A DNA stretch of 64,000 nt from Semisulcospira habei (taxonomy: Eukaryota > Mollusca > Gastropoda > Semisulcospiridae): the NCBI GenBank assembly GCA_036245525.1, contig BTPG01000005.1:119930417-119994416 (forward strand), in the 5' to 3' direction. Position 1 is the first letter of the stretch. Each line of letters starts with the position of its first letter. The position numbers were made by a program, and so were the translations under genes. This document shows, piece by piece, positions 1-64,000 of this stretch. The notes under the pieces are model-generated. The model was not told the DNA's origin and did not search any database. It saw only the letters and a program-made list of their open reading frames with translations.

Positions 1-26
1 CATGAAGATCTATGCATCTTGCAGTT
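1..26. repeat. Family A hairpin, right half at window edge
   Basis: The sequence CATGAAGATCTATGC followed by TCTTGCAG is the inner-to-outer right arm of family A. The left arm lies outside the window. Confidence 0.6.
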
Positions 27-59
27 GCGAGGATTAGTGAAAGCCTGGAAATAAAAATA

Positions 60-300
60 TGAGAAGATAAAAAAGAAAAGGGCATTCCAAACTTTGCATT
101 CCGATTGAAAAAAAAATGGGCAAGCCAGTGAAGAGAAAGGGGACCTGTCACTTTGGTCGATGCTTCATTCAGGGAGGATGTTTGCGAGTGTCTTTTTTCC
201 CGCTCTTTGGTTCTATACACTAGAAGATGTTAAAGATGTGACGGTGCAATTAAATCAGAGGCTTCATCAGCATAATCTCTGGGCGAACGGCTGTCGCCCG
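60..300. other. Unassigned sequence
   Basis: I see no gene, repeat family member or hairpin here apart from short A runs. Confidence 0.5.
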
Positions 301-302
301 CC

Positions 303-492
303 AGAGACATAGACCCTCGTGTGCCCCGCGCCTGCTCCTACACTGGGGACACGTAAAAGACGTGCCTTCGAAATTTCAATTAGAGTCTCATCCGCGCAGT
401 CTTCGAGAGGGCAGCGTTCATTTTTACAAGGGGCGTAGAGGCTCATGAGCGTAGACATATGAGTTGTCTCATGAGGATCCATGTCTCTTGTT
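303..492. repeat. Two degenerate family A fragments
   Basis: AGAGACATAGACCCTCGTG at 303-321 is a left arm with a poor right partner at 343-368. A second right arm (CATGAGGATCCATGTCTCTT) ends near 490. Both have diverged strongly. Confidence 0.45.
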
Positions 493-556
493 GGCATTCG
501 TGCTGCCAAACTATTGCCATTTACATCACCACCATGATGTTGATGAATGTATTTCT

Positions 557-627
557 GCGCTGGTCTGTGATTTTTTACCTTACCGCTGGAAGTAGTAAGG
601 TCTAAAATCACAGATCAGCGCACATTT
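557..627. repeat. Family E hairpin
   Basis: TGCGCTGGTCTGTGATTTT at the left pairs with AAAATCACAGATCAGCGCA at the right, around a GGAAGT loop. The arms are about 32 bp with a few mismatches. Confidence 0.75.
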
Positions 628-751
628 AAGCCTGTGGTCGTCAGGAGGAAGAGTTTATCAGAAAACTCACCACGATTCTATTGGCAATCGGTTTCTTTGA
701 AACTTCTTACAATTCTTTGAAACTTGCTCCTTTCCCTTTCTTGACGTTGGT

Positions 752-855
752 GAGCGGTGGGAACCCAGTGCGCAAAAGGTCATCGGGGCGAGGTCGGCCG
801 CCGTGCGCGGGCCAACGGCGGCCGACGTCGGCCCGATGGCCTTTTTCTCGCATTG
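752..855. repeat. Family H hairpin (CpG-rich)
   Basis: CAAAAGGTCATCGG and the complementary CCGATGGCCTTTTT flank GC-rich arms with GTCGGCCGCC and GGCGGCCGAC. The outer tips CCCAGTGCG and CGCATTGGG also pair, so the unit is about 100 bp. Confidence 0.75.
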
Positions 856-859
856 GGAA

Positions 860-1404
860 GATTGAAGGATTTGCAAGGATGTGGGACTATTATTTCCACA
901 GGCACATTCCTGTGGTTACCTTACAATGGCAGCTTTCTGAATTCTAAATTAAAAGAAACTTTTTAAAAATGCAAGGATACAGCTGGAAATTTTCGCAGAT
1001 AGGTCGATATATATGTCTGTCCTTAATAGTAACTATATGACACTGTCCTCCGCACAGACAGTTCAGTAGGGCATTTCGCTGAGACAGTTTGTTCACTCAA
1101 TTTACGGGTTCATTCAGTTCAGCGTATCTGCCGCTGCTTTTGCTGCTGATATTGTTGTTATTGTTACATTTTGTTTTGTTGCTTTTGCTGTTGCTGCTGC
1201 GTCTGATGTTGTAAAGTTTTTGCTGTTGCTGCCTATTGCTGTTGCTGCTCAGTGTTGCTGTTGTTACTGTTTTTGTTGGTCGACTTGTAGATGAGGTTAA
1301 ATGATTGACCTGGAGGTAGACGCTTGTTGACTGAAAAGCGGGTAAGGGGGGGGGGTGTTAGGGGGGCTACGATTAGAATTGGACTGAATGATGTCAGACA
1401 ACAA
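860..1404. other. Unassigned, TTG/CTG-rich centre
   Basis: No coding signal was recognised. From about 1134 to 1280 the sequence is an impure TTG/CTG triplet-rich tract. Confidence 0.5.
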
Positions 1405-1555
1405 TTCTCTCTCTCTCTCTCTCTCTCTCTCTCTCTCTCTCTCTCTCTCTCTCTCTCTCTCTCTCTCTCTCTCTCTCTCTCTCTCTCTCTCTCTCTCTCT
1501 CTCTCTCTCTCTCTCTCTCTCTCTCTCTCTCTCTCTCTCTCTCTCTCTCTCTCTC
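1405..1555. repeat. (CT)n microsatellite
   Basis: An almost pure CT dinucleotide run of about 75 units. It generates long but meaningless Ser-Leu and Arg-Glu reading frames. Confidence 0.98.
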
Positions 1556-1798
1556 ATCTCTCTCGCTCTATATCTCTCGCTCTGTCTGAATGTCTCCAGA
1601 ATGCAATCAGATTCACTAATCCGTCATCTCAAGTCCTGATATCGAAGTCACAGTCGAATTTGTCACGCCAATTCCTTTCGTCTGTCTACAGGCACGCGAC
1701 AATCTTTCCCTTTCAATCAGTCATGAATCACATGAGTAGCGCTTTTGGAGTCCTATATTAAATCACTTGCCACAAGTCGCAGAGATATACCAATCAAG

Positions 1799-61386: not shown

Positions 61387-61410
61387 CTGCACACACAAAC
61401 AAGCAACCAA

Positions 61411-61988
61411 ATAATCAGTCAGTCAAGAAAATCATCAACTATCAATATCAATCAGTGAAGAAAATAATCACCAATCCATCAAGGAAATAATCATCAATCA
61501 GTCAAGAAAATAATCACCAATCCATCAAGGAAATAATCATCAATCAGTCAAGAAAATAATCACCAATCCATCAAGGAAATAATCATCAATCTGTCAAGAA
61601 AATACTCATCAATCAGTCAAGGAAATAATCATCAATCAGTCAGGAAAATTAATCAATCACCAATCGGTCCACACAAAAAATTAATCAATCATCAATCAGT
61701 CAAAGTAATAATCAGTCAAAAGACTAATCAGTCAAGAAAATAATCAATCATCAATCAGTCAAGGAATAATCATCAATCAGTCAAGAAAACAATCAATCAT
61801 CCATCAGTCAGGAAAATAGTCAAAAAAATCAGCAATCATCAATCAGTCAAGGAAATAATCATCAATCAGTCAATAAAAAAAATCATCAGTCAGTCAATAA
61901 AATAATCAGCCAAGAAAATAATCAATCATCAATCAGTCAATAAAATAATCAATCATCAATCTGTCAAGAAAATAATCAATCAATCGAG
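61411..61988. repeat. 23 bp minisatellite (AATCATCAATCAGTCAAG type)
   Basis: About 25 imperfect units of AATCATCAATCAGTCAAG plus AAAAT, alternating early on with AATCACCAATCCATCAAG plus GAAAT. It lies in the intron next to the PARP-like exon acceptor. Confidence 0.93.
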
Positions 61989-62119
61989 AAACGCAGCAGT
62001 AGCTGGTTCAGGGGAAGTAATATATCTGACAGGATCATGCATTAAGACTGTCTAAAAATGTGGTTATTTCCCTTTACATATTTCTTTTCTAAACCTACTC
62101 CCTCGTCCATTCCGTCCGT

Positions 62120-62192
62120 CTGCAAGAGATACAGATTTACATCAGGCCCTGCAACCACAGGGTATCATGTAAATCTATGCACCTTTCTTACC
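62120..62192. repeat. Family A hairpin, decayed
   Basis: CTGCAAGAGATACAGATTTA and GTAAATCTATGCACCTTTC. The TTTACAT/ATGTAAA change is matched between arms. Confidence 0.75.
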
Positions 62193-62237
62193 AAATGCGG
62201 TTCAAGCTATTAATAGATTTGAGGATTCAATTTTCCA

Positions 62238-62453
62238 TTAACCCATTTAACCCCATAGCTCCATTTCCCAAATTGTGGAGGCGTCACCTAACAACTATGC
62301 ACAAGTTGCAGGAGAGAAATCGACCATGATAATTCGAGGGTAGCACCAGATAAGCTTGGCGCCTGATGGCGCCAAGCTCATCTGGCCCTACCCTTGAATT
62401 ATCATGGTTGATCAATCTCGTGCTCTAGCGCATTGGAGCTAAATGGGCAATTA
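62238..62453. mobile_element. B1 hairpin element
   Basis: TTAACCCATTTAACCCCATA at left, long arm with TTGTGGAGGCGTCACC. Hairpin GGCGCC-TGAT-GGCGCC. Right end GGAGCTAAATGGGCAATTAA carries a CAA insertion before TTAA. Confidence 0.88.
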
Positions 62454-62499
62454 AGTATGCAGCTGGAAAATTGTGGTGCTTACGCCCAGCTGTTTTGCC

Positions 62500-62566
62500 G
62501 GAGGTAAAGATTGACATGAGCCCATGCAGCTGCAAGGGCTCAGGAGAATCTATGCGTCTTGCTTAC
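62500..62566. repeat. Family A hairpin, decayed
   Basis: GGAGGTAAAGATTGACATGA and GGAGAATCTATGCGTCTTGC. Confidence 0.65.
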
Positions 62567-62611
62567 CAACACTGGCTCAAGCTGTTACTGGTGATCTGGG
62601 GCTGTTATTAA

Positions 62612-63514
62612 TAATAGCCTTTTAGCCCAAGGTCCCATTTCTCAAATTTTGGAGGTGAGCCTGTGACAAAACGTCGTGCACGTAACAACCGACATAGTTT
62701 TAGTCAAGAAAACCACACTACAACTGAAAATTAGTTCTTTTTGTGATTCCGCTAAGAAGACATTGTTGTTGGAACACTGGCCTTTCTCACAATGTTTCCT
62801 TTTTACCAGAATGGCTGGTCTATAGAGGATTTTCATGTGTATGTTCAATAGTATGTCCAGTGTCACACTGTGACAACAAACATTTTTCTCTTTGTATTTC
62901 TGTTATCTCATCTAAGGACAATGACTGAAGAACTTTTTTTGTAAAATGTGGTAATCACACAAAGAACTGTGTTTATGTGATTTAAATTGACTGAGTATGT
63001 CCACCGTACAATCAACACTGATTGTTACATGAAACTTAATTTCAAAAAGGATAAAATACCCTTCATACTTCCATGTGTCAGAACAGGTTATACAATTAAT
63101 TTCTTTTGAAAGAGAATAATGAAAAAAGATAAACTGACTTAATGTGATCATATTTATCACCGTATGTCCACCGTAACAACCAACACTTTCAGAAAGGGCC
63201 AGATTTAATATTCGCTGCTGGAAATCATCTGTTTCTGCATTTACATATTAATGTCACATGCCCACATGCCAGATACATCAAAACTAACCAGTGCCTAAAA
63301 TAAGCATATTTTAAAGACATTTCTGTTGGTCGTTACTTTTGGTACAAACGACCTTTTGTCACAGGCTCGTGTGTTGCCTAACGACTATGTACCAGTTGCA
63401 GATGGCTTGACCATGATAATTCAAGGGTAAAGGCGCCAAGCTAATCTGGCACTGCCCTTGAATTATCATGGTCAAGCCATCTCCTGCTGTAGGGATCTGG
63501 GGCTAAAAGGGTTA
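62612..63514. mobile_element. B1 element split by a 712 bp transposon
   Basis: The left piece TTTTAGCCCAAGGTCCCATT ... TTTTGGAGGT stops at 62656. The right piece resumes GTTGCCTAACGACTATG and includes a hairpin with a shortened left arm (63409-63472) and GGGGCTAAAAGGGTTAA to 63514. Confidence 0.88.
62657..63368. mobile_element. 712 bp TIR element inserted in B1
   Basis: GAGCCTGTGACAAAACGTCG at left and the complement of CGACCTTTTGTCACAGGCTC at right are terminal inverted repeats (18 of 20 match). An internal GTATGTCCACCGTAACAAC word repeats part of the left subterminal CGTAACAACCGACA. No coding frame. Target duplication unclear. Confidence 0.8.
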
Positions 63515-63575
63515 ACTTATGTAGAATATGACCAGAGAGATCTGTTTTACAATGATGGGAGTCCATGGCTGTTTC

Positions 63576-63670
63576 GCAAGAGACATAGATTCACACAGAG
63601 TCACAAGAGACACAGAATCATGTGAGCCCCTGCTGCGCAGAGGTTCACGTGAATCAATGCCTCTTGCTTG
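63576..63670. repeat. Family A hairpin with duplicated left arm
   Basis: GCAAGAGACATAGATTCACA is followed by a second left arm, ACAAGAGACACAGAATCATG, then the centre CCCTGCTGCGCAGAGG and right arm GTGAATCAATGCCTCTTGC. Confidence 0.8.
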
Positions 63671-64000
63671 CACTGGCCCTAGTTCTTACTAAACTGTTGA
63701 TGCCATCGGAGCGTTACACTTACTATGATGGAATCCATGCCGGCACCTGGTTGTTTGCGGGTTCGATCCTCCTTCGTAACCGTCTCTACAGCCCCCAGAC
63801 CCACCTCCACAAGTAGTAGCTTTCCAAGCTGTGAAAAAGAGAAAATACTTTTAAAATAAAATATAAATTTTAAATAAATATTAATTTTACTCTAAAATAT
63901 ATTTTTTCGAAAAATTCATTTTTCTCTAAAATTCATTTTTTTCGAAAAATACTTACCGATGACATGACTAACTGGAAGTGTCTACTTACTCACACAATTT
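63671..64000. other. Unassigned, AT-rich end
   Basis: GCGGGTTCGATCCTCC at 63758 resembles a Pol III B box without an A box. 63840-63950 is A/T-rich. Confidence 0.4.

What the first reader, a model, noticed from the sequence alone, without database searches (positions are those of the whole stretch)
1..64000. A community of TTAA-bounded hairpin elements with common ends but unrelated cores
Families A-long, B1, B2, B4, D, G and Q share no internal sequence, yet their intact copies begin TTAAC[CT]C[ACGT]TT or TTAACC-TTTT and end with the complement. Complete TTAA-to-TTAA copies: 6235-6439, 10589-10772, 15189-15404, 47285-47497, 57489-57699 (B1); 42179-42395, 55789-56009 (B4); 28285-28515, 44448-44638, 56970-57185 (A-long); 22801-22892, 39956-40047, 42729-42827 (D); 15593-15646, 43175-43254, 57182-57262, 58828-58908 (G); 58075-58748 (Q). 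TTAA duplication with CCC-starting ends is characteristic of piggyBac-type transposition, and the D terminus TTAACCCTTTGGCTGTCGG resembles known piggyBac-like ends. The inference is that one transposase type mobilises several structurally distinct hairpin elements, and that they fill a sizeable part of this window.
Basis: partly seen in the sequence, partly recalled or inferred. Interest (0 to 1): 0.85.

Follow-up and report, generated by a model that had tools for sequence, protein, structure and literature searches.

The report
Several piggyBac-type mini-transposon families, one genome
A fifth of this stretch of animal DNA is built from short transposon relics that sit at the four-letter site TTAA; they look like ordinary non-coding hitchhikers of piggyBac transposons, several lineages of which are present in the same genome.

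Summary
Of 100 genome copies of six families (A, B1, B4, D, G, Q), 90 were scored with TTAA at both ends (one of them a snapping artefact). Homology stops there: pairwise identity is 0.69-0.99 at bases 13-24 inside and 0.22-0.31 outside. Several empty target copies carry one TTAA; others are unclean. Relics cover 13,379 of 64,000 window bases (20.9%; none in the reversed window).

The genome holds many piggyBac transposase genes. In 10 of 19 fetched loci one lies between paired TTAAC.. ends, of five types. Q is an internally deleted cousin of one of them, 79-83% identical in blocks on both sides. B1, D, G and one B4 end resemble piggyBac ends only weakly; A has no partner.

Corrections: B1, B2 and B4 share a hairpin core, so their cores are not unrelated; A and B are not whole-element hairpins and Q is none; "one transposase" is not supported, since piggyBac lineages with different ends coexist.

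Verdict: piggyBac-type MITEs, a known kind, dense here. The odd residue: hairpin arms of A and B changed in concert and are more conserved than their flanks.

The parts
6226..6439 (+). B1 element, TTAA to TTAA, 214 bases (reader gave 6235)
   Evidence: genome copies align from 6226; profile hit E 3.9e-77
10589..10772 (+). B1 element, left end slightly shortened
   Evidence: profile hit 10593-10772
15189..15404 (-). B1 element
17677..17890 (-).
23640..23857 (-).
47285..47497 (-). B1 element
57489..57699 (+). B1 element
62238..62447 (+). B1 element, right end incomplete
2900..3107 (-). B2-type element (TTAACTCATT..), related to B1; right end judged by eye, decayed
   Evidence: profile B1 hit 2900-3082, E 6.8e-36; sequence
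42179..42395 (+). B4 element
55789..56009 (-). B4-like element
23061..23278 (-).
   Evidence: profile hit E 2.1e-56
28285..28515 (+). A-long element; hairpin core at 28331-28396
44448..44638 (-). A-long element with damaged core
56970..57185 (+). A-long element; shares its right TTAA with the G element at 57182
22801..22892 (+). D element, whole-length palindrome
39956..40047 (+). D element, whole-length palindrome
42729..42827 (-). D element
56120..56216 (+).
15593..15646 (-). G element, 54 bases, lacks the middle of the 81-base form
43175..43254 (+). G element
57182..57262 (+). G element abutting A-long at a shared TTAA
58828..58908 (+). G element inside a repeat whose other copies lack it
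58074..58748 (+). Q element, 675 bases, deletion derivative of a piggyBac transposon

Best explanation
These are miniature non-autonomous piggyBac transposons (MITEs) of at least five unrelated families: A, B (with subfamilies B1, B2, B4), D, G and Q. A piggyBac transposase supplied in trans cuts them out at their ends and inserts them at TTAA, which is duplicated on insertion. The families were probably served by more than one piggyBac lineage of this genome. Shown: TTAA boundaries, empty sites with one TTAA for some insertions, and Q as a deletion derivative of one piggyBac lineage. Inferred: that piggyBac transposase moved A, B, D and G, and which lineage did. Q copies are nearly identical, so Q moved recently; A, B and D copies are more diverged. 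Transposition itself was not observed.
For: 90 of 100 copies scored with TTAA at both ends, flanks unrelated beyond. Empty sites: the joined flanks of one Q insertion match 8 of 40 scored places at 99-100% over exactly 244 of 244 bases, 5 of them with the top score. Aligned letters show one TTAA in the empty repeat for Q_L063 (four other loci and two places of its own locus), Q_L046 (a second place of its own locus), Q_L068, B1_L038 and the window G at 58828. For the last, 37 of the 65 rows returned run across the site at 71-79% identity with small gaps (letters not read). Transposase: 116 hits scored of 1057 candidates, every listed row over the Pfam cut-off; six proteins from six loci carry PF13843 and two of them PF13842; the one compared with solved structures has two matches, piggyBat and a second transposase, 6x67. 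Paired TTAAC.. ends: L002, L003, L004, L005, L008 and L070, L071, L072, L074, L076. Q against the 3178-base element of L070: Q 1-94 at 79%, 102-261 at 81%, 256-639 at 83%, 646-675 at 83%. Elements abut at a shared TTAA 20 times against 25.5 expected if TTAAs are hit at random, and at no other short spacing so often (spacings of -76 to -90 are the lengths of single G and D elements). Mean pairwise divergence: Q 0.004, G 0.016, D 0.075, B4 0.103, B1 0.115, A 0.119 (copies were chosen as best hits, so biased low).
Against: Only Q has a clear autonomous partner. End resemblances of B1, D, G and B4-left are weak and uncorrected for ten comparisons each, and for D the lowest p falls on a lower-scoring end of another type. 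G begins TTAACTC, not the CC[C/T]T motif given for piggyBac ends, although the piggyBac element of L072 also begins TTAACTC. Several candidate empty sites are not clean: for Q_L052 only 3 of 13 aligned sequences have TTAA; B4_L096 meets TAAA in four places and a gap in a fifth; B4_L094 meets ATAC; B1_L031 TTGA; Q_L067 TTCA; Q_L041 has 9 extra bases; for Q_L063 one relative has a deletion and one has other letters. 9 of 19 piggyBac loci gave no end pair. Transposase activity was not tested.
Confidence: 0.9

Rival explanations
1. One piggyBac transposase mobilises all families by recognising only the short common end.
For: All families share TTAAC[CT]C.TT or TTAACCTTTT and the same target; the coral study raises such cross-mobilisation by various piggyBacs.
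Against: Five end types of piggyBac coexist; Q matches one specifically; over 20 bases after TTAA, ends of different families match at only 6-12 positions.
Confidence: 0.15
2. They are MITEs of the Kolobok superfamily, which also duplicates TTAA.
For: Same target site; Kolobok MITEs are known in Xenopus (passages).
Against: Kolobok ends start with two purines after TTAA; here they start CC or CT, as do the local piggyBac elements. No search for Kolobok transposase was run.
Confidence: 0.03
3. The TTAA ends are chance: TTAA is frequent and the hairpins are unrelated palindromes.
For: A simple inverted-repeat scan does not single out TTAA.
Against: Copy alignments stop at TTAA on both sides.
Confidence: 0.01
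4. The hairpin cores of A and B are mobile units of their own that were captured by TTAA elements.
For: 18 of 61 full-length A cores have no detectable A-long flank, with mean identity to the core of 84.3% against 86.7% for those with both flanks; B1 and B4 match best in the core.
Against: 43 of 61 A cores have an A-long flank on at least one side; at least one of the 18 is cut by the start of its locus; by eye no common boundary or target duplication was seen for the free ones; B2 matches the B1 profile beyond the core.
Confidence: 0.15

Closest known systems
Coral CMITE families (piggyBac-type MITEs of Acropora; PMC2872659, passages and one section read)
   Same: TTAA duplication, several families with different ends, internal region more conserved than the ends, elements in tandem, one family matched to an autonomous piggyBac
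   Different: Here there are five unrelated interiors, two of them complete palindromes, and the conserved inner part of A and B is a hairpin; relics cover a fifth of the window
mPok MITEs of Daphnia Pokey, a piggyBac (PMC3849761, passages read)
   Same: Q, like mPok, keeps both outer parts of an autonomous piggyBac and lacks the transposase gene
   Different: mPok shares a 28S rDNA target site; Q copies near-identical to the window's lie on all eight large contigs; rDNA was not examined here
Xenopus T2 MITEs of the Kolobok superfamily (PMC6004289, passages read)
   Same: TTAA target, many subfamilies
   Different: Ends begin with purines

Membership tests
piggyBac-type MITE | TTAA target duplication | tested here: met
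   90 of 100 copies scored with TTAA at both ends, one an artefact; single TTAA at several empty sites, others unclean
piggyBac-type MITE | End repeats with CC[C/T]T motif (definition) | tested here: inconclusive
   Q begins CCTT; A, B and D begin CCC followed by A, C, G or T, so only some read CC[C/T]T literally; G begins CTCTT, as one local piggyBac element does
piggyBac-type MITE | Short and without a transposase gene | tested here: met
   54 to 675 bases in the window, too short for a transposase domain of about 350 residues (length of PF13843)
piggyBac-type MITE | Autonomous piggyBac with matching ends in the same genome, Q | tested here: met
   L070:548-3725
piggyBac-type MITE | Autonomous piggyBac with matching ends, B1, B4, D and G | tested here: inconclusive
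   shuffle p, uncorrected: B1 left ends 0.0025-0.0125, D 0-0.0025, G 0-0.0025, B4 left 0.005 but B4 right 0.025 at best; scores 7-11 against 16 for Q
piggyBac-type MITE | Autonomous piggyBac with matching ends, A | tested here: not met
piggyBac-type MITE | Mobilised by piggyBac transposase | not testable with these tools
   needs an excision assay
Kolobok-type MITE | Purine-purine start after TTAA | tested here: not met
   ends start CC or CT; definition

The most novel reading that the evidence does not exclude
The inner hairpin of the A and B families is a functional part (for mobilisation or as a small-RNA source), kept paired while its sequence changed: arms differ less between copies than flanks, and changes on one arm are matched on the other far more often than expected. 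In this reading, hairpin modules persist while TTAA ends diverge to suit different piggyBac transposases.
Probability: 0.15. Interest if true: 0.55.

Novelty: new member of a known kind. Interest (0 to 1): 0.35.

Why it matters
It gives a clear case of several coexisting piggyBac lineages and their short parasites in one large animal genome, with one nearly identical and therefore young family (Q) whose autonomous relative is at hand. The concerted change of hairpin arms offers a testable question about what keeps palindromes intact as MITE families diversify.

Tried and rejected
A TTAA-anchored inverted-repeat scan against 15 other 4-mers did not separate TTAA, presumably because palindrome interiors score too. 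No Rfam match at gathering scores and no tRNA in the window. Preferred insertion next to other elements: not supported, 20 shared TTAAs against 25.5 expected. Homogenisation of the two arms after insertion: not supported, since mismatch between the arms of a copy (0.120 in B, 79 copies; 0.100 in A, 17 copies) is not below the arm divergence to the nearest other copy (0.071 and 0.049); I infer that the matched changes lie in the source elements. Organism: a COX1-like fragment on C5 reads open under the invertebrate mitochondrial code; not identified further. Paper searches were seen as listings with starts of abstracts, one search found none; passages were read of four papers and one whole section. 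None of the listings named these families, but most papers listed were not opened.
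Full report
Setting. The window is C5:119930417-119994416 of a 1.98 Gb genome in 507 contigs, eight of them between 178 and 344 Mb (contig lengths). A COX1-like fragment on C5 reads open under the invertebrate mitochondrial code, which suggests an invertebrate animal; it recalls molluscan COX1 to me, which is recall and not a test.

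Observation. All 18 stretches were read; 17 begin and end with TTAA as given, Q starts at 58074, and the first B1 copy at 6226. For six families genome copies were fetched from the best hits (B1; Q; A; B4; D; G). These searches score only 40 candidates each; first-look candidates were 5173, 971, 4032, 6935, 2439 and 2786. I took 30, 30, 10, 10, 10 and 10 copies. TTAA was scored at both ends in 26, 30, 6, 8, 10 and 10, with ends snapped to a TTAA within 8 bases; one counted B4 copy (L090) is a snapping artefact, and 9 of the 10 misses are one base off TTAA at one end. Identity between copies is 0.76-1.00 over the first 12 bases (TTAA included), 0.69-0.99 over bases 13-24 and 0.22-0.31 outside, on both sides. 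Such a sharp double boundary is what insertion at TTAA gives.

Empty sites. Three Q copies share a flank. Their joined flanks, with one TTAA, match 8 of 40 scored places at 99-100% over exactly 244 bases, 5 of them with the top score. I did not read the letters there, but a top-score match implies them. Within held sequence, aligned letters show one TTAA at empty repeat copies for Q_L063, Q_L046, Q_L068, B1_L038 and the window's G at 58828; other candidates are mixed or unclean and are listed under evidence against. For the G at 58828, 37 of the 65 rows run across the site without the 81-base element; two rows are the window's own halves, two are one-sided and 24 are secondary hits of the same places, which also show that this repeat is itself partly palindromic.

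Amount. Profiles of the six families find 38 (B1), 36 (B4, largely the places of B1), 50 (A), 8 (D), 7 (G) and 1 (Q) places in the window, together 13,379 of 64,000 bases; the reversed window gives none. In all held sequence, which was fetched for having elements, 416 of 1863 TTAA sites are the end of a MITE or piggyBac element; in the window 56 of 327. 20 are shared by two abutting elements, against 25.5 expected by chance. L076 shows D, a piggyBac element and G in a row, each pair sharing a TTAA.

Relation of families. Among the 100 copies compared all against all, the only cross-family matches at E 1e-3 are between B1 and B4, in 300 of 300 copy pairs, best over the hairpin. The B2-type copy at 2900 matches the B1 profile from position 26 to 214. 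So B1, B2 and B4 are subfamilies of one family, and A, B, D, G and Q are unrelated to one another at this sensitivity. D and G are palindromes from end to end, apart from one D copy; A and B carry a hairpin inside; Q is no hairpin.

Transposases. PF13843 has 116 scored hits, every listed row over the cut-off and many with no stop inside the match. Of 19 loci fetched (L001-L008, L069-L076, L117-L119), 10 show paired TTAAC.. ends (L002, L003, L004, L005, L008, L070, L071, L072, L074, L076), of five types: TTAACCCATATAAGCC, TTAACCCATTATTGCC / TTAACCCACTAATGCC, TTAACTCTTTGACACC / TTAACCTTTTGACGCC, TTAACTCTTACCAGTT and TTAACCCTTTCGYCGC. The other 9 show no pair. The Pfam domain is found in all six proteins tested, and the one protein compared with solved structures matches piggyBat at E 1.9e-29.

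Partners. Q matches the L070 element (3178 bases) over almost its whole length in blocks of 79-83% identity, the outer parts in the right order, with the transposase gene missing. That is an internally deleted derivative of a relative, as described for Daphnia mPok (PMC3849761, passages). For the other families only ends could be compared, with 400 shuffles each and no correction for ten ends. B1 left ends resemble two piggyBac end types (p 0.0025-0.0125). D scores highest with a third type (p 0-0.0025), though its lowest p is with a lower-scoring end of the L070 type. G resembles that same L070-type end (p 0-0.0025), and B4's left end the first type (p 0.005) but not its right. A gives nothing (best 0.02). 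Scores are 7-11, against 16 for Q. Hence one clear pairing and hints of others. Several piggyBac lineages are present; that several served these elements is inferred.

Hairpins. In 102 distinct B cores, changes matched on both arms number 203 against 42 expected from independent arms; in 82 distinct A cores, 91 against 20. Partners slid by 2 or 3 bases give 26, 28, 35 and 52 against 29-30 expected in B, and 15-24 against 14-22 in A; the 52 shows that relatedness of copies alone adds some. 13 of 56 and 10 of 31 pairs show at least three such copies. Among near-full copies (79 B, 17 A), arms differ between copies at 0.161 (B) and 0.070 (A) and flanks at 0.304 and 0.244. Copies were required to hold the core and are related to each other, and poor alignment of flanks raises their divergence, so this is suggestive only. 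A conserved interior with less conserved ends is the unusual feature reported for coral CMITEs (PMC2872659, section read). 18 of 61 A cores show no A-long flank, at least one because its locus begins there; whether the rest are eroded or independent copies is open.

Verdict. Ordinary in kind, rich in extent: piggyBac-type MITEs, with one clear source lineage, others only hinted at, and an unexplained constancy of the hairpins.

Noticed in passing
window 28737-28804, 41074-41139, 60988-61053 and others: A-type hairpins without detectable A-long flanks or TTAA; 18 of 61 full-length cores in held sequence.
   Followed up: partly
window 556-627, 3530-3650, 9540-9622: Other hairpins, seen by eye, without obvious TTAA ends.
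   Followed up: no
window 13067-13466; 51072-51843: Long inverted repeats (165 bases at 98%, 94 bases at 100%, 80 bases at 98%). A B4 insertion in L096 lies in a relative of the first.
   Followed up: no
G000:C1:25334793-25335456: Three head-to-tail partial B4 units of about 120 bases before a full B4 copy, like the tandem MITE arrays reported in corals.
   Followed up: no
G000:C5:145342821-145343522 (L120): COX1-like fragment in a chromosome-size contig, 234 codons open under the invertebrate mitochondrial code.
   Followed up: partly
L014 and L016; L060, L061 and L062: B1 and Q copies sharing their flanks, so the insertion was probably duplicated later with its surroundings.
   Followed up: partly
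window 1400-1555, 7317-7580, 8500-8685, 10930-11340: Long runs of simple repeats (by eye).
   Followed up: no
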